A stretch of 64,000 nt of DNA from Hypomesus transpacificus (taxonomy: Eukaryota; Chordata; Actinopteri; Osmeriformes; Osmeridae). The first letter of the stretch is position 1. Every line of letters starts with the position of its first letter. Below are positions 1,808 through 48,490 of the stretch, in pieces. Location of the stretch: contig NC_061074.1 in the NCBI RefSeq assembly GCF_021917145.1, forward strand, positions 2,231,487 to 2,295,486. Reading direction: 5' to 3'. A model generated the notes under the pieces. It had not been told where the DNA came from, searched no databases, and was given only the letters and a program-made list of their open reading frames with translations. A program made the position numbers and the translations under genes.

Positions 1808-4800
1808 CCTCTCTCAGGATGATTGGGATCTCCAATGGAACCAAGGCTCTATGTTTAGTGATCGACACCACAGGCAGCATGTCTGATGACATTGCTGAGG
1901 TGAAGAGGGTGTCTTCCTTCATTGTTGACAGCAGGAGAGGAACAAAAGCTGAGCCCTCACTCTACATCCTGGTCCCCTTCAACGATCCAGGTGAGACATT
2001 CTCATTGGTCGAAGATCAGTAGATTATTTAAGTGTGCCATTTCTTGTAATCATGGTTTCTCTGTTTCTAATCCAGAATTTGGGCCACTAACGAGGACAAC
2101 AGATCCAGACTACTTCAAGACCCAGATAAACAGTCTTACTGCTTCAGGTGGTGACGATATTCCTGAGTTGAGTCTGTCAGGACTCCAGGTGAGCCTACAC
2201 CAACAATTAAAACACTAGTCACATGTGACAAAAAGGCTTGACCAGGTCCACACTTACAGCACCCAGTGTCCCTTGTGTTTTGCAGCTGGCGCTAACAGCT
2301 GCTCCTCCATCCTCGGATATCTTCCTCTTCACTGATGCCCCGGCCAAAGATACGCACCTAAGAGGCACGGTGACTGCACTGATAGAGCGCAGCAAGTCAG
2401 TGGTGAGTAGCTATTCTTTCTTGAGAGGAAAGCAACAACTCATACAGCATATCCCCAACACCAAACTTGAGGCCCAGAGACAGTGTACTGATGTCTGTAC
2501 TGTCATTAATACAGTATACTATGGTCACAAACACTCCCACCGGTGTATCTGACAATACATATGTCATACTAAATATAACAGGGAAAAATTGAGGTAATTT
2601 TTAACTGGAATTTTCTTTGTCAATCTTAACCCTACATGTACCTTTTGATGTCATTCATTTGATGTGTCTAATTTTAGGTGAATTTCATGTTGACTGGGGG
2701 CCTTGCGTCCAGAAGGAGAAGAAGAAGCATTGGAAGTATTGACACCCAGCTGTACAGGGACTTGGCCCAAGCCTCCGGGGGACAGGCCATCCAGGTCACA
2801 AAGACCCAGCTGCCCCAGGCGACCAGCCTGATCTTGCAGTCCACCAGCCCCAACCTGGTACTGTACCACTGAGATGAGAAACTATTCCGTAGTAACTGAC
2901 TCAGACTTGATTACTCTGTGTTGGTAGCTTATCTGTATTTTACTGTGCGCATCCACGCCCCTTTTATTAAATTTATATGCAGTTCTATGGCCAAAAATTT
3001 TAAAAATACTAAATATCTATAGGCGTGTGAAGCCCTCTGTGACATCGCTTGTAAAAAGGGCTATACAAATAACATTTGATTTGATTTATTTCTTTCTCGT
3101 GCTTCTTTCATTGTCTTTTGTTCTCTCTTTCTCAGGTGACTCTTCTGCAGGCTGTAAGGAGCCCTGGAAAACCAGATAACTTCTCCTTTGTTGTGGACGT
3201 GTCTGTGACCAATGTGACCGTCTACATTGTTGGGTCCGCCCCCTCATTTACTCTTATTAATCCTGCAGGTGACAACAGTCTTTACAATATGTATTTTTCT
3301 TGGTATGACATATATAACTATTGTTTAAACTGCTAATATTACTAATGATGTATTAGTATTTGTATTCTGTGACTTGTACAGTGATGAAACCAGAGCCCAT
3401 TATGTCTGTTTCAAACAACCTTTCAAAACAAGTATATTGTTTTATTTATCCACAGGTGTGTCACAGAGTAACCTTGACATCAATGACCTGCTGGCATCAG
3501 TCTAAAGTGTGGGGACATTTCAAACATTGCTGCTGAATAAAAAAGTGGGGCTCTGGGAAATCAGAGTTGACTCAGCGAGGCCCTACACTCTAAAGGTTGT
3601 AGGTGAGAATGAATACATATTGGGAGAGGGTTAAATAATCCTTCCATGCCCTTGTTAAATCTATTCTAATATAATGTAACTGTTTTACTTTTGCTCATTA
3701 ATGATAATACCGGTAAGTGACATTCATTAACATTGTTATCTTATTAATCACCTGTGTCAAAAGTGTAATTTGTTTTAATGATGTATGCAGAGTCCAAAAT
3801 GTACTTTGTACATAAATAATCAGACATATTTTTTACCAGCCCCCAAAAATATATATTGGTTTTGACTAGCTATTGTAATTTGCTTTTGGTAGTAATTATC
3901 ATGTCATCTTGGTCGCATATGCGATTCTCAATCAATATTATAGTCATGTACAGTGATAATGGTTATTATGGTAATTTACCATTAAACTACCATAACTTAA
4001 TGGTTTTAGCTACTATAAGCGTACATCACAAAAAAATACTGTATGATGACTGACGTGATTAACGTTAGGTATGCGCACAACACATGCAGCTAGGCATACC
4101 CAATCAGATTAAAGTGACAGCAGAACCAGCAGCTTTCTCTAGCGTATGTAGGAAATTATATTTTTTTACCCCCCAGTGTGGTGTGTAGTGACTGTAATTT
4201 ACCCACCGAAAAGAAAATGTATGCATTTTTACTATATTATTCTACTTCCAGGTCAGAGCACTCTCAATTTTCTGTTTGAACTTGTGGAGGTTGCCCAAGG
4301 CTCAAGTCTGGCAATTTTAAACACCCGTCCAGCATCTGGTGAGAGAGGAAGATTCTATGTGCCATTGCAGATGCGTTCATATCAACACAGATTGGGCTGA
4401 TATTGGCTTTCTCTCAGTTCCTCATCATTCTTGTTTAATCTGCTACCAGGCAGCAACGCCACCCTGGTGGTCACGGTAACAGGCAGCGACTCTGCGGAAG
4501 TGACGGAGGTGGCATTGGTAGAGTCCTCGGGGACGCAGGAGATCAAAGGCAGCGTGCAGCCAATAGGGGGCGAAGATTTCCTGGTGACGATGGGTAAACT
4601 ACCCGCCGGCGACTTTTTAGTGCGTTTTAGTGGAATAGACAGCAGCAGCAGAACCCGGGCTGCACCAATCAGCTTCCAGAGACAGTCCTCCACTCGTGTC
4701 CGGACCTCCAGTTTCTCGGTTACGGTAAACCCTCGGGTCATTCAGATATCACTTTATCACAGCTCTTCCACCAGCTTTCTATCCAGAGACACCTATCCTG

Positions 4801-6035
4801 GATTATCTACATTATATAGTATAATCTCACCTCATTATTATTTAATGTAATTTGCTGTCTGACCACAGTGTGGATGACTGTCTATGCTGTGTCCCTCGTC
4901 ATCAGGCTGTATTTGACGGTGTCTTTGAGCCAGGATCGTCCCCTGTAGTCCCATTCACAGTGTCAACCAATGGCACGGGAGGAGAATTTGTTATCCAAGC
5001 CACCAACAACCAGGGGTTCAGATCCTCCTTTCCGTCCAGCCTGTTTGTGGAGACTGGGGGGAGCGCTAACGGAACTGTCACCCTCACAGTGCCCGCCGAC
5101 ACGCCCTCCGGCAGTGACGTCACCCTGACCATTGAAGCTCAGGCCCCAGGGACGGTTGAAACCAATTATGCTGTGCTGCGCCTCTCTATCACACGCCAGG
5201 TAACACACCAAAGACACAGGAAAACCGTTTTTTCTCCAAAAAATCCTCTCACAAGTAGGGCAGTGTGGGTCAGATAGCTTGTTTGTAGAATACCATTTAA
5301 ACCAGTCTTGACTACACGTCACTTCAAACAGCTCCTCCTGTTCTTGTCTTTTCTTCCTCTAAGGCAACAGACGTGACTCGCCCTGTTTGCCAGATCGTCA
5401 GCGTAACGGCCAACTGTTCCGCCAACTGCAGCCTGTCCACATGGCAGCTCTCTGCCAACCTCTCAGACGGTAATGGGACGGGCATCCAGCGGATCAGCCT
5501 GCGCCAGGGTGACGGCACCCTCAACACCACTAGGGTGTTGGACCCTGAGGGTGAAAACGTGACCCTGGCACTCTACAGTGCCTCCTGCTGCTCTCCAGAT
5601 GTAGAGCTGGTGGCTGTGGATGGTGAGGGGAATGTGGGCACGTGTTTCCGGTCCATCAGGGTGGCGACGACAACGGCACCTAACACCACTGTCTTTACCT
5701 CTCTGCCTATGACCAATGCTACAACGGTGGCTACCACCAGCCAGGCACCTAACACTACTGTCTTTACCTCTCTGCCTATGGCCAATGCTACAACGGTGGC
5801 TACCACCATCCAGGCACCTAACACCACTGTCTTTACCTCTCTGCCTATGACCAATGCTACAATGGTGGCTACCACCAGCCAGGCACCTAACACCACTGTC
5901 TTTACCTCTCTGCCTATGACCAATGCTACAACGGTTCCTGTAAGCAATCCCACCAGCAGTGGGAATACTTTAGATGTGTTTGCTTCCATCTATCTCACTG
6001 CTGTTCCTCTTGTAATCCTTAAACTTGGCATTTAG
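41..6035 (+). CDS. vwa7-like: VWA7-like von Willebrand factor A domain protein (5' partial, with in-frame stop)
   Basis: Fifteen exons are visible: 41-187, 263-531/532, 728-821, 931-1056, 1428-1614, 1818-1990, 2076-2188, 2286-2402, 2678-2857, 3136-3268, 3456-3602, 4252-4338, 4450-4724, 4906-5199 and 5364-6035. Exons 1-5 resemble the N-terminal region of VWA7 (a DFYSHSNW motif, then a cysteine pair CRSC). Exon 6 opens the VWA domain with a MIDAS-type motif DTTGSMSDD, followed by FLFTDAP in exon 8. Later exons look like Ig/adhesion-type beta domains with many N-glycosylation sequons. The last exon has a Thr/Asn-rich repeat stalk and ends in a hydrophobic tail, suggesting an extracellular, perhaps GPI-anchored protein. 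The true start is left of the window. Exon 11 has an in-frame TAA at 3503-3505, and the exon 2/3 junction lacks GT-AG. It may therefore be a decaying paralogue, a null allele or a sequencing error. Confidence 0.8.
1687..1817. repeat. (CT)n microsatellite before VWA7-like exon 6
   Basis: Almost pure CT dinucleotide run with a few TTT and CCC interruptions. It directly abuts the acceptor of exon 6 and so doubles as an unusually long polypyrimidine tract. Confidence 0.95.
3020..3092 (+). repeat. LINE 3' tail fragment in VWA7-like intron
   Basis: The sequence around GGGCTATACAAATAACATTT followed by a TTGATTTGATT-type tail is the familiar 3' end of fish L2/CR1-like LINEs. Only the tail is present, so this is a severely 5'-truncated insertion in the intron before exon 10. 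Confidence 0.6.
5676..5936 (+). repeat. 69-bp coding tandem repeat (four units of 23 residues)
   Basis: Near-identical 69-bp units start at 5676, 5745, 5814 and 5883 (the last is truncated). Each encodes a unit beginning APNTTVFTSLPM and containing two N-x-T sequons plus many Thr residues. This is a mucin-like stalk just before the hydrophobic C-terminus of the VWA7-like protein. Unit number is likely polymorphic. Confidence 0.95.
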
Positions 6036-6429
6036 CTATTTGGTGGATTACAATGTGATATTGCGAGTATCACAACAGTATGTGTGTATGTAGAAGTTAT
6101 GATTACTATTGAGTAATTATTCTATATAAGATTCTATATTCGAGTATTCTTTATTATTATTAGATCAAGGAGCCAAATATTATCATTATTTGGTATCCAT
6201 CCAATCATCATCTTCTGTTTATCCGGGGTCGGTGTGTGTAATTTAAATACATGAAAATATCTATTTCTGAAAAAAAAATCAGAATTCCTGTTTAAATGAT
6301 AGACTAGGCCTATAAAAGTGGCCTAGTTAATGAAAAAGAAGTCAGATAAAGATGTTGAAAAAAGTGCATTTATAAGAACTCAATTCACATTTTTGCTGCT
6401 TTCTGTTATTTTGTGGCCTAGATTAACAT

Positions 6430-6632
6430 TTAAAATTTTAACATTTAGTCATTTAGCGGACGCTTTTATCCAGAGTGACTTACAGTAAGTACAGAGACAT
6501 TCCCCCCGAGGCAAGTAGGGTGAAGTGCCTTGCCCAAGGACACAGCGTCATTTAGCACGGCGGGGAATCAATCCAGCAACTTTCTGATTACTAGCCCAAC
6601 TCCCTCACCACTCAGCCATCTGACTTCCGCCA
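6430..6632 (+). repeat. Dispersed fish repeat (copy 1)
   Basis: Starts with an ACATTTAGTCATTTAGCGG-type end and contains CCCCCGAGGCAAGTAGGGTG and GCCTTGCCCAAGGACACA. The same sequence recurs at 22,441-22,620. The remaining bases of 6,036-7,475 are AT-rich and show no gene that I can support. Confidence 0.75.
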
Positions 6633-7475
6633 GGTTAAAAGGCAAATGTTATTTGACAATAATGAATTATTCATTTTAGCATCCCCTGTGTGCCAGTGTA
6701 GGTCAGTTAGCTGTCGCCTACTGATTACTAGCCTAGTTCAACCCTAGTGTAAAAAATGTTTGTTCGGTTGTGCCTGCCTTTTTTCAATATTATCGCTAAC
6801 TAGTTTATTTTGAGCAACATCCTAAAATCGACAAAAGTCAAAAGCTACTCCTGTAGCACACAGAAAATATAGCTCTAGTGCTAATGTGACAGACACAAAA
6901 TTAATTATTAGTGGGCTTATTTGTCTACAATCACCAATTGACAGTTTTTTGCTTGTACAAAAGGTGACAAAATGTGATTTTCTCGCCCTATAGAGAATGA
7001 TTGGAGGAAGTATGGTTTGAACATGGGGGAGAGGCAGTTGTCTGCCTCTCCGAGAGAGGCGTTAAACCTCAGGAATCCCAAATCCACAATATCCTTTTCT
7101 AATTATGAATATGTAATTTAGGTTGTGGGCTAAAAAATTATCATGTGTGAAGCAATAATATTAACTTCTTTTAATCACTTTTCTTACAAAATTGTTCATA
7201 CCTTTATGATGCTGGTGATGATCATTATACATTCTTACTTGCCATAGGGCCTACTGTTCAGAAAATGTTTGGGTTCGGGTTGAAGCTCACATTTTCTATG
7301 GCAAGCCGATAGAACAGTGCCCCCTTCCTGGTCAGTTTTCTAGGTCAACAATTTTGGTGAACATTCGGACATCTTGAATCCAAGGCTATTTTACTAATGA
7401 AATACTGTCTAGCTAACTAAGGAAAAGACAATATTTAAAGTGGATGGTTTATTGCAGTAGGTAGGCAGGAAGGTA

Positions 7476-10400
7476 TTAGCTATCCGCTGAAAAGTGGATG
7501 TCCCTGTCTGAGCTAGCAAAATGGTGAACGCCAAGCCGTTGCTTCATAATGAGTGCTTCGACACGTTGCTTAAGATGGAGAATCTCTTCTTTGAGAGATT
7601 CGTTTTCTTGGAGTGCATGAACAGCGGGATCCAGAACCGAAGCGTAGTCGTGGTCTGCCAGTAATTCATCCATCTTCTTACCCTGTGGTGGGTCTTCTCC
7701 CACGCCTCGATCTATCCTCTCCCACACACCCAGTCTGAGGTGAAACAGTATTATGAACAAATGAAAGTGATAGCAGAAAATGAATGTACATTAGAGTGAA
7801 CCAATTAGATCATATACGCTTTGGGTGTTTTTACTCTGACTCATCTGATTCTTCGCCCAGTCCATCCTCTCCACAGGTGGCAGTGGTAACATGACTGAAA
7901 AAAAAAACTGTCGCATTAATTCGATTCAGTAGTAGGCTATTTAGTTAAATCGATGGTTTGTTTGTTTGTTTAATTTGGATACCCATTAGCTCCAACATAA
8001 GCTGAAAGCTATTCTTCCTGGGGTCCTACAATCTATCATGTGACAACACAATTTACGACATCACATTTCACACCATACACATTATTCAGATTACAAATCA
8101 TATTTACAATTAACACAATTAATCACACACACAAAAAGAAAAAATCTAAAAATAAATAATATTGAGAAAGTTGACAAGATACCGCTACCCCAAATAGATT
8201 TTTAAATGTTATATTAAATATATTTTTAAATGAGATATAACAAAAGCCCTATGACTGAATATTTCTTAACTGATCTTAATTATTGCAATGTCTTTGAAGG
8301 TAATAGTTCTTCAGTAATTTTTTAAAACCATACTCTGGGTGTTTTGTTGTTTGATGGTAGTTGGAAGAGAGTTCCATTCACACATTGCTCTATACCTGAC
8401 TGAACGTTGAATTGATTTGGTTTTCACTTTAGGTGACATAAAACTACCTCCTACTGCATGCTTTGTTGGATAATGATGTATATCATTGCTAAACGATAAT
8501 TTTGAATATACAGTAAAAGGTGTTTTGTTTGTTATAACATTGTAAAAAAATGTTTATATTAGTGAATACAAAAATCAGTTTTTAACTGTAAACCATGAGA
8601 GGCTTTCATGCATTTTATCCACATTTTATCTAAACCCACATGAGAGAGCCACATGTGCCACTTTATTCTGTATTACTTGTAGTTTTCTTATATTAAGTGT
8701 TGAGGTGCTGGACCAAACAACAGAACAATAATCAAGGTGTGAAAAAAACTAAGCATGAATTACTTGTTTGACAGTCTGTGATGTAAAGTGTTTAGCACAC
8801 CTTTTAATAACAGACAAAGTGTTGCCCATTTTAGTTACCAGTTTTTGAACATGTCTATCCCAACACAATCTATGATCAATCGTCACTCCCAAACGTTTAG
8901 CCTCTTCTTTTTGCTCTACAGAATTTTTCTCTATGCTGAGTTCAAGTTTTGGTTTGGAACATAAAGAAAAAGGAGTTCCAACCACTAAACAAGTAGTTTT
9001 AGAGATATTGAGAATCAATTTGTTACTCCTTATCCAGTCCACCACAAACTGTAGCTCTTTTTGTAGGTTTGTATTTAAATCACCAATATCAGTTCCTGCT
9101 AAATATATAGTGGAATCATCAGCAAACATTGAAATGCTTGCTTTATCTAAAAACAATGGAAGATCATTGGTAAAGATTGAGTAGAGGAGCGGCCCAAGAC
9201 AACTTCCTTGAGGCACGCCATGTTCTACAACCCTTACCTCTGAAAAACTTCCATTAAAGTAAACTAATTGTCTTCTCTCTGTCAAATAACTTTCCATCCA
9301 TAATAATGCGGTTCCTGAAAAACCATAATATTTCAATTTTTTTTTTACAGTAAATCATGATCAATGATATCAAATTCTGCAGTCAAATCCAGATTTACAA
9401 CACCTATTATTTTCCTTTCCTCCATATCCTTGAACCAGTCATTTACCATCTGAGTCAAGGCAGTGGCTGTTGAGTGTTTTCCTCTATATGCATGCTGAAA
9501 ATGTGTAATTAAATCGTTGTTAAAAAAATAAGACTGAATCTGTTCATAAACAATTCTTTCCATTATTTTACTGAGAATTGGTAATAAACTTATTGGTCTA
9601 CTTTTTGAGCCAGAGAAAGACATTTTCTTATTTTTAGATATTGGCGCCACATTACATATTTTCCATGCTTGCAAACATATATTTTCCATAAAACACATAT
9701 TAATTATATGAGCAATAGTAGGAGCAATGATTGAAACTATTGGTTTAAGCAACTTATATTCAAGATAGTCAACATCAGGCGGTTTGTTTTTACAATTCAT
9801 CAGAAGTAATTCCACTTTGGAATCACTGACACATTTAAAACCAAATGTTTTACCTTCCATCATCTTAATTATCAATGTAGTTGATACATCTATTTTATAT
9901 GACTGTGTTATATTTTAAAGATTATTTATTTTATTTATGAAATAGTCGTTGAGATGATTCGCTATATCACTTGGATTAGTAAAAAATTCACCTTCACTTT
10001 CTAAATAACCTGAAGTTGATTTATTATTTCCTCTTACTATATTATTCAATGTATTCCATAATTGTTTACTATCATGTTTTGTTTCTGTAATTTTCTTACA
10101 GTAATACAATTGCCCTCCGTCCGTCTCTCTGTCACTCATGCGTCTTTCTCACATATGCACAGTCACAACGTCAGCACACGTTAGCAACAATGCATACATA
10201 CGGCGTTCTAGTAAGACCGAAAGCTATATCAGCGAGCTTTCAGCATTAGTGTCGTAGCTAAAAGTCGAGGAAAGTTGAGGCTACTTTTCGCTAGGTACCT
10301 TACTCGAAGGTTCCCCTTCGTTCTTTTTGTGAGAAGTCTCAGGAGCTAGCTACTTACCCGGCGTCCTGGAGCCGACCAATTAAATAGTTGTTTAGCACTA

Positions 10401-11298
10401 GCGTGGCTATATGCATAATGGAGAAATTATATCTGACAACCCCTACCCCCCTCCCCGCCACAACTAGATTTCTAATCTGTGGGAAACACTGCATGATTTT
10501 CTACTATTGTCATTAAAGTTCTAACAAAGAACTGAAATGCTTTTCTCTGGATCCTTAGGTACCTCTGACCAATTTGCATTTCTAATATCATCTAACAGGT
10601 CCTACTGACTGTTGGACTGAAATGAATACCTTGCCGTTCTAACAATCGTGCGCCTGCCATGCTTGATTGAGGACCATGTGAAGAGAGTTGGTACAACACC
10701 CTCCCTCAGTTTCCTGATGCCACATAGCGTCTTAGTAAAGGACTCTTCAGGAAAGTGATCGGAACACACTCTGGTGTTGTCTGCGATCTGTAAAAACAAT
10801 GATCATAACAACTAGTATCAAAACAAATCAGTAATTGATACATATCTAGCCAGCCCGACTTGCATTTGGCTGGTATCTTCGTGTCCTGCTTGCTAGCTAG
10901 CGTAGCTAACATTAGTTAGCTGACTTGTCACTGATGTTAACGAAGTTAAAAATATCTATTGTTTACTTTAGTGTTAATGTTGACTAGTTTTGCTTGAGTA
11001 ACATTATGCTCTTATAATAAAAATATATTTACACCAATCATTCACGATGTTACGTTAACTAGCTCTAACTACTACTTGCTAACTTTTGGTAGCTAATGCA
11101 CCGGTTGCTAGCTACTGTGACGTTAGCTGTTAACAGTAGCCTTTGTCTAACCTTAAAATGCGGACCAATATCTCTCCTTATTTTAATAACCCATTCTCGA
11201 CGAATTGCAGAATTGACAGGGAAGCGGTGAAATGTTTTCCGTTTGCCAGATTCCTTCTTTTTGTTGGACTTGCACTCGGGGACGCAGCAGTAGGACAT
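7476..11298 (-). pseudogene. THAP-domain/DDE-type transposase remnant or truncated THAP gene
   Basis: Exon A (about 11,152-11,298) and exon B (about 10,625-10,787) join in frame to give a complete THAP zinc finger. Exon A carries CCVPEC and FHRFP; exon B carries VCSDHF and the VVPTLF box. Downstream, 7,840-7,900 has an acidic stretch ending GEESDESE. Bases 7,476-7,735 encode a coiled coil (ALQENESLKEEILHLKQRVE), then FASSDRD, and stop at 7,476. In fish THAP transposases of the ISL2EU/DDE_Tnp_4 type, a helix-turn-helix and DDE domain would follow that point. Here they are missing. A LINE occupies the intron. It could be a dead transposon or a host gene that kept only DNA-binding and coiled-coil parts. 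Exon B/C joining is inferred. Confidence 0.6.
7955..10139 (-). mobile_element. Jockey-superfamily non-LTR retrotransposon, 5'-truncated and frameshifted
   Basis: Three minus-strand reading-frame blocks (10,139-9,915; 9,875-9,345; 9,336-8,749) carry reverse transcriptase motifs in order: RPISLLPILSK, a finger segment HAYRGKHSTATAL, VPQGSCLGPLLYSIFTNDLP and the catalytic FADD box. The blocks are separated by frameshifts, one at a T-rich run near 9,340. In RT motif A the usual D-S-A-F is changed to T-A-E-F (near 9,375), so the enzyme is dead. The 3' untranslated part runs to about 7,955 and includes the fish LINE-like segment GGATACCCATTAGC and CTTCCTGGGGTCC. Clade (Rex1, L2 or CR1) is not certain. 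Confidence 0.8.
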
Positions 11299-11689
11299 CA
11301 CTCTGTTTTGTTGTCCAATCGAGCCTCCTTTTCGTTGAGCTCGATATCAAAATGGCGACGCATGTGAAGCTGAAGGGCGGAGTCAGACGTTCTTAACATT
11401 TTAGGACCTAGTCAGAGCCTGTTTAAATAACAAGTCACAGGTGATGTTGTGCTGAAAAAAAGATACCAAACATTGGAATGGTAAACATTTCTTCATGTAT
11501 TATATCAAGGGCAAATCAAAGGCCTACTCAAAAACGTCCGTGTGAATAGGTGTGTTCGACTTCATGCAGCACCGGCGGCGCAGAGAGCCGTCTGGCTCGA
11601 AGTTGAGAATGCCATTGGCTATGGCGAGCGGATATGGCGAGCGGAAAGGGACATTCCTAGGCTTACCAGGAGAAGGAGCAATCTAACCA

Positions 11690-12070
11690 TACGTCGCCGC
11701 CAGACCGTGTGGATTTTTTGAATGGAAGTGAATGGGACTGCAAACGAGAGACTGGCGGCGACGTGGCGGCGACGGCATGTAAGGGACGTCTACCGGCGGC
11801 GACGTCGCGGCGACGCATGTTCGAAAGTATACAAAATTCTTACGCCTACTAAGTACGTCTGAGATAAGTACGTCGTCACTAAGCCGTCGTCGCCAAACAA
11901 CACACCTACTAAGTAGCTACGTCGCCGCCGTCACTGACTTTTTTTTTCAAACCTTATTGAGTGAAATAAAGTCGCAAAATTCGCCAAACAACACACCTAC
12001 TAAGTAGCTACGTTGCCGCCGTCACTGACTTGTTTTTTCAAACCTTAATGAGTGAAATAAACTCGCAAGG
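11690..12070. repeat. GC-rich subterminal motif cluster, left end of foldback element
   Basis: Many copies of GGCGGCGACG or its complement CGTCGCCGCC lie in otherwise AT-rich DNA. They are followed by a tandem pair (11,892 and 11,980) containing CAACACACCTACTAAGTAGC. The mirror cluster is at 17,505-17,775 with only one such unit. Such subterminal arrays are typical transposase-binding regions; that role here is inferred. Confidence 0.7.
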
Positions 12071-13634
12071 CTACATGTTTCATATGTTAAAATGTCTTTA
12101 TTTAGAACTATAGTGTAAGAGTAGCCAACTGTGCACAGTCTATAGCATAGAGGATTTTACAACAGGTGCAGGGGGTGCTTTTGCACCCCCTACTGTTGGG
12201 ATGAAAAAAATACATTTTCAAACTAATGTAGGCTACACAAACGATTAAAGGTTTTTAGAACATGTTAAAGTGATGTCGGAGTTTTATGTTCTATCATGGT
12301 TTGTTGTACTCTAATAATTAATTATACATTGTAAGATCCAGTATTCATTTTGAGCATGTTTTAAAACCTAGCCTGTAGTATGCTAATTGTTTGTAGGCTT
12401 TTTGAACATTTTGACATTTAATAATTATAGATTGATATGTGGATATAATCATTCAAACCTTTCAAAGTGCCAATACACACATCTGTACAAGCCCAGCATG
12501 AGGTGTGTAGCCAACCAGTGCTTATTTAAAGCTGTCATAACCGGGTTCATATATGAAGGAAGAATAGATAGATACGTAGGCACTCCAGGCAGTGACAAGG
12601 CACAGAAAATAAGGATAACAGTGTATTTATTCAATAAAAAGGGCTTCCAAAGAAACAGTTGGATGTGAGGGTCATGTAAATTAGTAGTGAAGGGAGTGGA
12701 TGTGGGATCAGTGCAAGTGTAGAGTGTGTAGAGAATCATTACAAACTAAAAAGCAAGCAGTGATGATGTTTCTGCTATAGAGAGACTCAGCATATTAAGA
12801 ACCGAGGCACAGATCCCAGGTGTACCCTTGCAGCAATCACAGCTCCTCTACCTGCCTGCCATCCTGCAACAGAAACAGACACAGAAACAGACCAGGAGAA
12901 GAGAACCAAACAATGCTCAGAGCCAACAATCTAACATGGTTTATGCCATCATCAGAACAGGCATAACCTCCCGATCACTACAAGTCATTCAGGTAATTGT
13001 AATGTCCTATTGACATCTGTGAACATATGCTTTCTCAAGTAGTATTTAGCCAACTGAAGAAGCTGTGCTTTCACTGAACCACAACCTAGCATAGTCTAGG
13101 TGACCACAATACAGTGTATTTGGTGCTTGTAAAGTTTGCATTCATTACAATTGTTATATTGCTTGTATTTGGTTATTTCCCAACATGTGGCAACAGTATA
13201 GTCTAGTTGTATTGAGTTTGTTTGATGTGTTTGCTAACTTGGTGGTTCTAATAAATTACTAATGAATGTAGCCTATTGCTAATGGAGTTTTAATTGATAA
13301 TTTTGCCTTCTGACTACACTTTTCTGCTTAGCTCTGGTGTAGAAGTGCAAGACAGCAAATTAAACATATTCAGACCATCAGTGAAGGTTTTCATTTTTTG
13401 TGTGGACGCTACACTAACAGAACCTAGCACACTGTTATAACAGGATACCAAAGTTTATTTGTCACTAGCCTATTGATATTGCTTTAAACATGATTCTATA
13501 CCATTAAATTCACAACTTTCAGGGTTAATACTGAAGATGTATTAGATAGTACCCAATTGCTGTGAAAGTACCAAGTCAATGAAGTGAATCACCAAGTACA
13601 AGTTCAAGATAAATTCAACGTTTTTATTATAGAT

Positions 13635-13769
13635 CTATAAAGTGCAGGTGTCTGCACCTTTAGTACTGGTGTCTTCCAGCTCCTCAGCTCTCTCAATACC
13701 TAGATATGTTTCTGTAACTTTTTTATTTACTGGGGCAAAAAAGGCTGCAATGTCCCTTCCACAGTTCAT
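13635..13769 (-). pseudogene. 44-codon ORF in left arm, hAT/TTF-type transposase start-like
   Basis: Open from ATG to TAG, beginning MNCGRDIAAFFAPVNKK and rich in acidic residues after that. The basic-plus-SFF/AFF-P pattern resembles the extreme N-terminus of zinc-finger hAT transposases. An ORF of identical length lies in the right arm at 15,769-15,903. Too short to be a functional enzyme. Confidence 0.35.
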
Positions 13770-13894
13770 GATGACTACTCGAAGAAGAAAAACAATGTAA
13801 TGTGTAAAATGACTAGTGAGTGTGTCGACAATGTATCAATATACATATCAATGTGCATTCTGAAGGCAACAGGGGGAAAAGACTCAAGGATGGG

Positions 13895-14055
13895 TGCTAA
13901 CAGTCTCTTAGGATCCTGCCAGCTTTCCTGAGGCATCGTGTGTCGTAGGTGTCCTGTAGGGCAGGGAGCATCCTGCCAATGATGAACTTAGCAGGCCGGA
14001 CCACACTACGTGGGGCCTTGCGAGTGAGTCCCATCAAGCAGAGACTGTCTCCAGA
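13895..14055 (-). mobile_element. L2/Maui LINE 3' fragment in left arm
   Basis: The complementary strand encodes a block of the form SVVRPAKFIIGRMLPALQDT followed by [13 protein letters not shown]. It matches the C-terminal part of the L2 element at 26,341-27,690. The inverted twin is at about 15,485-15,645 (+). Confidence 0.75.
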
Positions 14056-14592
14056 TTTTAGAATGAGAGGTGGGGACAGGGTGACACCCAGCCTTACAAG
14101 CTCTATAAATTATGATGGTGTCCAACCATCAATGTGCTTTGTAGGTGAGATGAAGGATTTATTATTAGATTCTGTATTTACAGGGAGGCAGTTGAGAGAA
14201 GCTATTAATGGAAGAAATATGATCTCTCTTCCTAGTTAAATTGACATGTTTAGCAAAATATTAGCCTAATTGTTTATACAGGTCTATCTTATTGTAAGGC
14301 CTGGGCTATAAATCAGTTATTCTACTTAGTCCATAGATGTAAAGTGAAGAAAACTTAAGGCCAACTCTAAATGATCTGGCAGGCTAGTTAGTAGGCCTAT
14401 CTAGCAATAGATAGAATAGGCTGTTACTTTCATATGGGCTTCTCCCGCCATCCACTCTTGGAACTGGAGTCCCAATGTTTCTCAACACATTCTCAACCAG
14501 TATTTTATCCACTGCCTGTCTTGTCCTTCTGAAGTTGTTAAATTGAATAGGCTAAACATCAACATGTAACATAAAGTATAGCCTAGACTGTC

Positions 14593-14933
14593 TAAGCTAT
14601 ACTTTATAACGTCGTCGCCATACTTTCCTACATTTTAGAGTAAATTTATAGTTATAAGGTTTTTGCCAGTTCATCATTTTGGAGCTTTTAACACGAAGCA
14701 AAGGCATTGTCAGAAGATGACTAGTCGTAGCCCGACATTAAAAACATTTTATAGTCGGTTGACTGATCGCGTTGTTGTACCCAGTCAAAGGAATAAACAC
14801 ACAGGAACATCATGAACATTCAATGGTCTAGCCCAGTTATCCTGGCAAAACATGTAACATAATGTTCTATATGTATTGCCAGGACACGGAGTAGCCTAGG
14901 CATACGTAAAATTGAAAGCTAATTCGTTTGGAA
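14593..14933. other. Unpaired spacer of foldback element
   Basis: Unique 341-bp AT-rich centre between the two arms. No ORF of note and no recognised repeat. Its presence argues against a simple assembly reflection at the centre. Confidence 0.7.
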
Positions 14934-15484
14934 TGTCTAGGCTATACTTGATGTTACATGTTGATGTTTAGCCTATTCAATTTAACAACTTCAGAAGGAC
15001 AAGACAGGCAGTGGATAAAATACTGGTTGAGAATGTCTATTGTGATGCTATTACTAGAAACATTGGGACTCCAGTTCCAAGAGTGGATGGCGGGAGAAGC
15101 CCATATGAAAGTAACAGCCTATTATATCTATTGCTAGATAGGCCTACTAACTAGCCTGCCAGATCATTTAGAGTTGGCCTTAAGTTTTCTTCACTTTACA
15201 TCTATGGACTAAGTAGAATAACTGATTTATAGCCTAGGCCTTATAATAAGATAGACCTGTATAAACGATTAGGCTAATATTTTGCTAAACATGTCAATCT
15301 AACTAGAAAGAGAGATCATATTTCTTCCATTAATATCTTCTCTCAACTGCCTCCCTGTAAATACAGAATCTAATAATAAATCCTTCATCTCACCTACGAA
15401 GCACATTGATGGTTGGACACCATCATAATTTATAGAGCTTGTAAGGCTGGGTGTCACCCTGTCCCCACCTCTCATTCTAAAATC

Positions 15485-15645
15485 TGGAGACAGTCTCTGC
15501 TTGATGGGACTAACTCGCAAGGCCCTACGTAGTGTGGTCCGGCCTGCTAAGTTCATCATTGGCAGGATGCTCCCTGCCCTACAGGACACCTACCACACAC
15601 GATGCCTCAGGAAAGCTGGCAGGATCCTAAGAGACTGTTATCACC
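15485..15645 (+). mobile_element. L2/Maui LINE 3' fragment in right arm
   Basis: Inverted duplicate of the left-arm fragment, encoding the same FIIGRMLPALQDT and CLRKAGRI blocks in forward orientation. Confidence 0.75.
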
Positions 15646-15768
15646 CATGCTTCAGTCTTTTCCCCCTGTTGCCTTCTGAATGCACATTGATATGTATATT
15701 GATACATTGTCGACACACTCACTAGTCATTTTACACATTACATTGTTTTTCTTCTTCGAGTAGTCATC

Positions 15769-15903
15769 ATGAACTGTGGAAGGGACATTGCAGCCTTTTT
15801 TGCCCCAGTAAATAAAAAAGTTACAGAAACATATCTAGGTATTGAGAGAGCTGAGGAGCTGGAAGACACCAGTACTAAAGGTGCAGACACCTGCACTTTA
15901 TAG
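15769..15903 (+). pseudogene. 44-codon ORF in right arm (twin of 13,635-13,769)
   Basis: Same length and same reading as the left-arm copy, ending in TAG. The frame is unchanged between arms, as expected if the arms diverged recently. Confidence 0.35.
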
Positions 15904-18180
15904 ATCTATAATAAATACGTTGAATTTATCTTGAACTTACTTGGTGATTCACTTCATTGACTTGGTACTTTCACAGCAATTGGGTACTATCTAATACATC
16001 TTCAGTATTAACCCTGAAAGTTGTGAATTTAATGGTATAGAATCATGTTTAAAGCAATATCAATAGGCTAGTGACAAATAAACTTTGGTATCCTGTTATA
16101 ACAGTGTGCTAGGTTCTGTTAGTGTAGCGTCCACACAAAAAATGAAAACCTTCACTGATGGTCTGAATATGTTTAATTTGCTGTCTTGCACTTCTACACC
16201 AGAGCTAAGCAGAAAAGTGTAGTCAGAAGGCAAAATTATCAATTAGAACTCCATTAGCAATAGGCTACATTCATTAGTAATTTATTAGAACCACCAAGTT
16301 AGCAAACACATCAAACAAACTCAATACAACTAAACTATACTGTTGCCACATGTTGGGAAATAACCAAATACAAGCAATATAACAATTGTAATGAATGCAA
16401 ACTTTACAAGCACCAAATACACTGTATTGTGGTCACCTAGACTATTCTAGGTTGTGGTTCAGTGAAAGCACAGCTTCTTCAGTTGGCTAAATACTACTTG
16501 AGAAAGCATATGTTCACAGATGTCAATAGGACATTACAATTACCTGAATGACTTGTAGTGATCGGGAGGTTATGCCTGTTCTGATGATGGCATAAACCAT
16601 GTTAGATTGTTGGCTCTGAGCATTGTTTGGTTCTCTTCTCCCTGTCTGTTTCTGTGTCTTTGTTTCTGTTGCAGGATGGCAGGCAGGTAGAGGAGCTGTG
16701 ATTGCTGCAAGGGTACACCTAGGATCTGTGCCTCGGTTCTTAATAAGCTGTGCCCTAAAATGCTTGGTCTCTCTATTACTAGCAGGAACATCATCACTGT
16801 TTGCTTTTTAGTTTGTAATGATTCTCTACACACTCTACACTTGCACTGATCCCACATCCACTCCCTACACTACTAATTTACATGACCCTCACATCCAACT
16901 GTTTCTTTGGAAGCCCTTTTTATTGAATAAATACACTGTTATCCTTATTTTCTGTGCCTTGTCACTGCCTGAAGTGCTTACGTATCTATTCTTCCTTCAT
17001 ATATGAACCCGGTTATGACAGCTTTAAACAAGCACTGGTTGGCTACACACCTCATGCCGGGCTTATACAGATGTGTGTATTGGCACTTTGAAAGGTTTAA
17101 ATGATTATATCCACATATCAATGTTTAATTATTATATGTCAAAATGTTCAAAATGTGAATAGCCTACAAACAATTAGCAAAGGCCTACTACAGGCTAGAG
17201 GCGATTCTAGGTTTTAAAACATGCTCAAAATGAACACTGGATCTTAATGTATAATTAATCATTAGAGTAGCCTACAACAAACCATGATAGAACATACAAC
17301 TCTGACATCACTTTAACATGTTCTAAAAACCTTTAATCGTTTGTGTACATTAGTTTGAAAATGTATTTTTTTCATCCCAACAGTAGGGGGTGCAAAAGCA
17401 CCCCCTGCACCTGTTGTAAAATCCTCAATGCTACTGACTGTGCACAGTTGGCTACTCTTAAACTATGGCTCTCAATAAAGAAATGTTAACATATTAAACA
17501 TGTAGCCTTGCGACTTTATTTCACTCAATAAGGTTTGAAAAAACAAGTCAGTGACGGCGGCGATGTAGCTACTTAGTAGGTGTGTTGTTTGGCGACGACG
17601 GCTTAGTGACGACGTACTTATCTCAGACGTACTTAGTAGGCGTAAGTATTTTGTATACTTTCGAACATGCGTCGCCGCGACGTCGCCGCCGGTAGACGTT
17701 CCTTACATGCCGTCGCCGCCAGTCTCTCGTTTGCATTCACTTCCATTCAAAAAATCCACACGGTCTGGCGGCGACGTATGGTTAGGCTGCTCCTTCTCCT
17801 GGTAAGCCTAGGAATGTCCCTTTCCGCTCGCCATACATTGGCTGCTTCAAGTCAGCCGGGCTGCAGGCGACGCCGGCGCTGCTTGAAGTCGAACGCACCT
17901 GTTGTATTTGTATGATCTATCATTTATTGTAACCCGTAGTACGGTGGCCGACATGTGCAAACGCGCTGCAAATTAAGAAAACACATGCAAATGTACAAAA
18001 CACAAGCAAATTAAGAAAACGTCTTCATTAATTTGACAACACATGCGCAGCCTTCAGCAAAGGCGCTGCAAATACACACAACACAACCAAATACACAAAC
18101 GCGCTGCAAATACATAAATGCGTTGCAATAACGAAAGCAGCAAACCAAAAACGTTGCAGTACACATACGCTTTGCAAAAA

Positions 18181-45034: not shown

Positions 45035-48490
<3,456 letters not shown>

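What the first reader, a model, noticed from the sequence alone, without database searches (positions are those of the whole stretch)
11545..17905. A 6.4-kb foldback element with 3-kb near-identical arms
Two arms of about 3 kb in inverted orientation with a 341-bp unique spacer are rare in vertebrate DNA. The arm ends coincide with a GTTCGACTTCA-type terminus and GGCGGCGACG arrays, so the arms look like a mobile unit and not random duplication. Both arms carry the same L2 fragment and the same 44-codon ORF. The duplication therefore post-dates those insertions. It could be a new foldback transposon family, two head-to-head copies of one element, or an inverted duplication. The family could not be named from sight.
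Basis: partly seen in the sequence, partly recalled or inferred. Interest (0 to 1): 0.75.

Follow-up and report, generated by a model that had tools for sequence, protein, structure and literature searches.

The report
Two-copy chimeric foldback fish transposon
A 6.2-kb mirror-image stretch of fish DNA is not a duplicated piece but two different copies of one small jumping element joined tail to tail and sitting as a single insertion inside a third, tiny element; it hints at how foldback transposons can arise but is a variant of known things.

Summary
The inverted arms are real: 11633-14588 and 14935-17835, 97.95% identical outside gaps. Boundaries and interpretation change. Searching the host genome (437 Mb, apparently a fish) shows that each arm is a copy of a low-copy, ~3.4-kb element with 22-bp TIRs, usually found singly. 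The window holds two copies, tail to tail, both lacking 3' ends; the 'spacer' is mostly the right copy's 3' region. The GTTCGACTTCA sequence belongs to a flanking MITE. The unit (11620-17835) lies between two CATTGGC repeats, and its joined flanks rebuild an intact ~130-bp MITE (40 of 40 scored genomic copies span the joint). The junction occurs once in the genome and carries an inverted 17-bp filler, suggesting template-switching repair. TA..TA ends and 6-bp TSDs at three other loci fit IS3EU; no transposase was identified. One other 5'-5' pair (C17) and a separate multi-copy foldback family exist. Best reading: chimeric foldback transposon formed by aberrant repair, in place or before a jump; new variant of a known kind.

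The parts
11545..11619 (+). left half of the ~130-bp palindromic host MITE (ends like AGGTGTGTTCGACTTCATGCAGC); last 7 bases 11613-11619 = target-site duplication CATTGGC
   Evidence: joined flanks match intact MITE copies across the joint, 40 of 40 scored; sequence checks
11620..11632 (+). extra 13-bp copy of the element tip (TATGGCGAGCGGA), inside the target-site duplication
11633..14588 (+). left element copy, element positions 1-2895 of the 3471-bp reference copy C22; outer part in subfamily-A state, inner part B-like; 3' end missing
11890..12068 (+). tandem subterminal repeat in the left copy (two 88-bp units, spacing 91)
14589..14605 (.). 17-bp filler at the junction; 16 of its bases are an inverted copy (one mismatch) of the adjoining end of the left arm: templated insertion
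   Evidence: junction matched in full only here
17836..17905 (+). right half of the host MITE; first 7 bases 17836-17842 = target-site duplication CATTGGC

Best explanation
A chimeric foldback transposon. SHOWN: two copies of a ~3.4-kb TIR transposon, whose outer parts belong to different subfamilies, are joined tail to tail with both 3' ends lost; the outer ends are both of the 5' type; the unit occupies a single site in a MITE between identical 7-bp repeats. INFERRED: the mobilising enzyme is an IS3EU-type transposase acting in trans, and because the outermost 22 bp of both element ends are identical, two 5' ends can serve as a pair. INFERRED mechanism: an ordinary element sat in the MITE; after excision or breakage the gap was refilled from both sides by copying different family members, the right side priming on a 5' TIR instead of a 3' TIR, and the unfinished strands were joined by templated end joining, leaving the snap-back filler. 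The alternative order (the pair formed elsewhere and then jumped as a unit) gives the same product and is the first rival.
For: Of the 12 loci with near-full copies that I read, 10 hold one such copy; of these only C22, C29 and C21 have both ends and no large insert, the rest are truncated at an end or interrupted, and C21's copy is nested in an older ~80% relative. Intact 3471-bp copy with perfect 22-bp TIRs and a 6-bp TSD at C22. TSD CATTGGC and empty-site MITE: 40 of 40 scored copies span the joint; of six fetched, five have one CATTGGC and no gap, one has a 1-base deletion there. Different subfamilies: 100/99 branch, AU p=0.011; outer part winL-C17a2 15/1063, winR-C29 13/1080, winL-winR 35/1036. 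The left arm is mosaic: subfamily-A state at 11 of 12 diagnostic sites up to 12792 and at 0 of 4 from 13334 to 14554, as template switching predicts. Junction matched in full once in the genome, with an inverted filler.
Against: No empty or single-element allele of this very site has been seen, so repair in place is not shown. The mosaic left arm could be ordinary gene conversion before pairing, and a mosaic row strains a single tree. The inner 1.78 kb alone does not separate the arms from the other copies. The AU p is moderate and I had seen the pairwise distances before testing. No transposase found. TSD is 7 bp here against 6 bp at C22, C21 and C17a; C29 has none, C62 one base, C23 an ambiguous 15-bp repeat. 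The pair is not shown to have jumped more than once.
Confidence: 0.6

Rival explanations
1. Composite transposition: the tail-to-tail pair formed at another place (for example adjacent insertions, then loss of the two 3' ends) and transposed as one unit, using the two outer 5' TIRs, into the MITE.
For: TSD and intact-MITE reconstruction. A second 5'-5' pair at C17 also sits between 6-bp repeats AAAAAT, in a tandem repeat whose joined flanks match uninterrupted copies. A related foldback family has 34 spacer matches of 380 bases or more, so foldback units with such ends can multiply.
Against: No other full match to this junction in the assembly.
Confidence: 0.3
2. Two independent neighbouring insertions later fused by deletion or ectopic crossover, as proposed for chimeric Galileo copies.
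For: Different subfamilies in the two arms; such chimeras are reported for Galileo (PMC3573991, passages).
Against: Galileo chimeras have non-matching flanks; here the flanks match for 7 bp and rebuild one MITE. Among seven loci, 0 of 42 mismatched flank pairs share 4 bp or more; one shares 3.
Confidence: 0.05
3. Assembly artefact (misjoined inverted copies or haplotypes).
For: Reads were not available; inverted repeats are hard to assemble.
Against: Arms differ by 58 substitutions and 16 gap events and in their outer parts each is closest to a different other copy; the TSD is exact; no N in the window; the contig is at least 2.29 Mb long.
Confidence: 0.04

Closest known systems
IS3EU / GingerRoot DNA transposons (PMC10045372, passages seen)
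   Same: TA..TA termini and 6-bp target-site duplications
   Different: no transposase identified in these copies; 7-bp TSD for the window unit; classification rests on termini and TSD only
Galileo chimeric copies, Drosophila (PMC3573991, passages seen)
   Same: long inverted arms whose two halves belong to different subfamilies
   Different: [quoted passage not shown] this unit has matching ones. Galileo is a P-superfamily element with its own transposase sequence
Foldback elements such as Tetris (PMC4079207, search listing with start of abstract) and FB4 (PMC8277862, passages seen)
   Same: long inverted arms forming one unit
   Different: here the arms are two separate copies of an element usually found singly, and this pairing was found once
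Pack-TIR gap filling / FoSTeST (PMC8277862, passages seen)
   Same: proposed template switching inside a TIR transposon, guided by microhomology
   Different: there non-TE sequence is captured; here a second family member lies in inverse orientation

Membership tests
IS3EU superfamily | TA..TA termini | tested here: met
   TATGGCG...CGCCATA at C22, C21, C29 and the window
IS3EU superfamily | usually 6-bp TSD | tested here: inconclusive
   7 loci: 6 bp at C22, C21, C17a; 7 bp at window; 0 at C29; 1 base at C62; 15-bp ambiguous repeat at C23
IS3EU superfamily | IS3EU-type DDE transposase (autonomous member) | not tested
   right copy read in six frames gave no Pfam family above its cut-off; an autonomous partner in the genome was not searched for
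Foldback transposon | long inverted arms bounded together by one TSD | tested here: met
Foldback transposon | repeated occurrence of the same paired unit | tested here: not met
   junction query matched in full only at the window
Dada superfamily | insertion in multicopy small-RNA genes | tested here: not met
   targets seen are a MITE, a tandem repeat and an older relative; definition from starts of abstracts in the listing
Simple inverted duplication | arms are each other's closest relatives | tested here: not met
   AU p=0.011; left arm in a 4-row clade at 100/99; outer-part distances

The most novel reading that the evidence does not exclude
In this genome IS3EU-type elements turn into foldback elements repeatedly: identical 22-bp tips let two 5' ends pair, so chimeric 5'-5' units with proper target-site duplications arise by mis-templated repair and remain mobile; the window unit is one caught near its birth, and the multi-copy TATGGAAGGCC foldback family is what a successful one becomes.
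Probability: 0.3. Interest if true: 0.6.

Novelty: new variant of a known kind. Interest (0 to 1): 0.45.

Why it matters
The origin of foldback elements is hard to read from old, homogenised arms (general knowledge). Here the two arms still show different parents, a repair-like junction and a clean target-site duplication, which separates 'chimera by repair or unit transposition' from 'inverted duplication' and from 'ectopic crossover'. It also corrects the dating logic: a shared insertion in both arms need not mean duplication after that insertion.

Tried and rejected
Simple inverted duplication rejected. Gene conversion between the arms in the inner part: not supported, winL-winR 25/1778 is no closer than winL-C13 22/1780 or winL-C17b 26/1777. 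Coding content: in six frames of the right copy no Pfam family reached its cut-off; one weak Nmad2 match, E 0.0037, 17.3 bits against a cut-off of 26.1. C371's 5-kb insert was thought to be this family's own transposase; it holds a hAT-like ORF (by eye) nested in a 1.28-kb segment shared with C23 and partly with C328. Searching the terminus string in papers gave 13 papers, none on transposons by title or start of abstract. Dada considered and dropped. I saw no paper on a teleost foldback or an IS3EU foldback among the rows listed by searches (20 of 393 papers; 15 of 62; 12 of 30,238; 12 of 138); only titles and starts of abstracts were seen there, in an open-access library. One search's script failed (division by zero) and was replaced; one search's script failed part-way and was completed. 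In one search two of six MITE copies (L035, L037) were aligned on the wrong strand; one search did them again.
Full report
OBSERVATION. The inverted repeat is real. Best coordinates: left arm 11633-14588, right arm 14935-17835, 97.95% identical without gap columns, 58 mismatches and 16 gap events. There are no Ns in the window. The differences make a trivial assembly copy unlikely, but reads were not available.

THE GENOME. The window lies in a 437-Mb genome, G000:C15:2231487-2295486. Four SNORD15 matches and the gene content (by eye) point to a fish. A 321-bp arm probe gave 30 scored matches, a capped list, of which 14 are near full length at 97% or more; two of these are the window's own arms. 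The 14 lie at 12 loci. I read 20 kb around ten of them and 9.5 kb at C21; the window is the twelfth.

THE ELEMENT. Ten of the 12 loci hold one near-full copy; two (window, and C17 at 10.52-10.53 Mb, 'C17a') hold two copies in 5'-5' arrangement. Among the ten, C22, C29 and C21 have both ends and no large insert; the others are truncated at an end or interrupted, C328 also carries inverted end pieces, and the C21 copy is nested in an older relative. The intact copy C22 is 3471 bp with perfect 22-bp TIRs TATGGCGAGCGGAAAGGGACAT. The exact tip occurs 32 times in the genome (17 forward, 15 reverse; 0 for the backwards-pattern control), so this is a low-copy family. No Pfam family reaches its cut-off in six frames of the right window copy.

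TERMINI AND TARGET. At seven of the loci read, both outer ends could be placed to the base. TSDs: window CATTGGC 7 bp; C17a AAAAAT, C22 CCCTCT, C21 AGGAAT, 6 bp each; C29 none; C62 one base; C23 a 15-bp repeat that looks like the tip of another element and is ambiguous. Of 42 mismatched flank pairs none shares 4 bp or more. At C21 the young copy lies in the 5' tip of an older relative about 80% identical. Joining the window flanks with one TSD copy removed gives a ~130-bp palindromic MITE; the search had 697 candidates and scored 40, and the 40 best rows all span the joint, at 89-94%. Of six copies fetched, five carry a single CATTGGC without gaps and one has a one-base deletion there. The joined flanks of the C17 pair likewise match uninterrupted copies (the 41 best rows cover at least positions 6-138 of 140; list cut), but they are part of a tandem repeat, which makes that evidence weaker.

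TWO COPIES, NOT ONE DUPLICATED. In a tree of 13 copies the left arm falls with C22, C17a1 and C17a2 (100/99), the right arm elsewhere, with C29 (88/85); the best tree with the two arms together is rejected (AU p=0.011). In the outer part (11645-12800) the left arm differs from C17a2 at 15/1063 and from the right arm at 35/1036; the right arm differs from C29 at 13/1080. In the inner part (12800-14580) the arms differ at 25/1778, no less than from several other copies, so neither a recent duplication nor arm-to-arm conversion is indicated there, and the inner part alone cannot tell subfamilies apart well. At sites where C22, C17a1 and C17a2 agree against the eight other copies (one exception allowed), the left arm has the A state at 11 of 12 sites up to 12792 and at 0 of 4 from 13334 to 14554; the right arm has the B state at all but one (12647) of these 16.

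JUNCTION. The left copy stops at element position 2895, the right at 3230. Of the 17 bp between them, 16 repeat, inverted and with one mismatch, the adjoining left-arm end. The 91-bp junction query matches in full only at the window; the other 37 rows cover parts, mostly the 3' element part.

MECHANISM. Shown: two copies, different subfamilies in their outer parts, both truncated at 3', in one MITE with matching flanks. Inferred: mobilisation by an IS3EU-type transposase (termini and TSDs as described in PMC10045372, passages) and formation by template-switching repair. Whether the pair formed in place (gap repair priming on a 5' TIR) or formed elsewhere and jumped as a unit cannot be decided; I favour repair in place because the junction is found once, carries filler, and the left arm is mosaic. 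The contrast with chimeric Galileo copies, which have non-matching flanks (PMC3573991, passages), argues against ectopic crossover.

WIDER SETTING. A different foldback family with TATGGAAGGCC..GGCCTTCCATA ends shares a ~580-bp region (about 80%) with this element. A 501-bp piece of its spacer gave 42 matches (40 of 43 candidates scored; some rows are pieces of one copy), 34 of them over 380 bases or more and ten at 100% (rounded) over all 501, the query's own place included. I read three copies: C62 (arms 89% over 2230 columns), C11 (arm pieces 87, 91 and 97%) and C14 (arms 95.3% over 2067 columns; outermost tips bounded by GATCTT on both sides, by eye). C62 also carries 69-bp tips of the window family at both ends.

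VERDICT. Real, mobile-looking, chimeric; a new variant of a known kind. Interest 0.45.

Noticed in passing
L030 (C62), L031 (C11), L038 (C14); spacer L030:2500-3000: A separate, apparently recently active foldback family (~5.7 kb, ~2-kb arms, TATGGAAGGCC ends): 42 spacer matches, 34 over 380 bases or more, ten at 100% (rounded) including the query's own place. The C14 copy is bounded by GATCTT repeats.
   Followed up: partly
L030:212-280 and 6015-6083: The C62 foldback carries 69-bp 5' tips of the window family at both ends, symmetrically, as if terminal tips were swapped between families.
   Followed up: partly
11620-11645; also C17a2, C17b, C91 (5' ends), C13, C371 (3' ends): Element tips are often repeated in tandem (such as TATGGCGAGCGGA twice), at the window and C17a inside the TSD; C17a1 has a 33-bp inverted repeat of its own 3' tip.
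   Followed up: partly
L029 (C21) 2332-7667: A young copy is nested in the 5' tip of an older, ~80% identical relative with TATGGGGTGCGG tips, TSD AGGAAT.
   Followed up: partly
L009-L010 (C371), joined 20 kb, 9948-14936: A hAT-like transposase ORF (by eye, not scanned) nested in a 1.28-kb segment that also interrupts the C23 copy at the same place.
   Followed up: no
11065-11346 (-): THAP-domain fragment, Pfam E 1.2e-8, about 200 bp outside the left MITE half.
   Followed up: no
45222-47339 (-): Four SNORD15 matches in a row.
   Followed up: no
15670-15834 (-): Weak sub-threshold match to Nmad2 (E 0.0037, 17.3 bits, cut-off 26.1) in a read-through frame of the right copy; probably chance.
   Followed up: no
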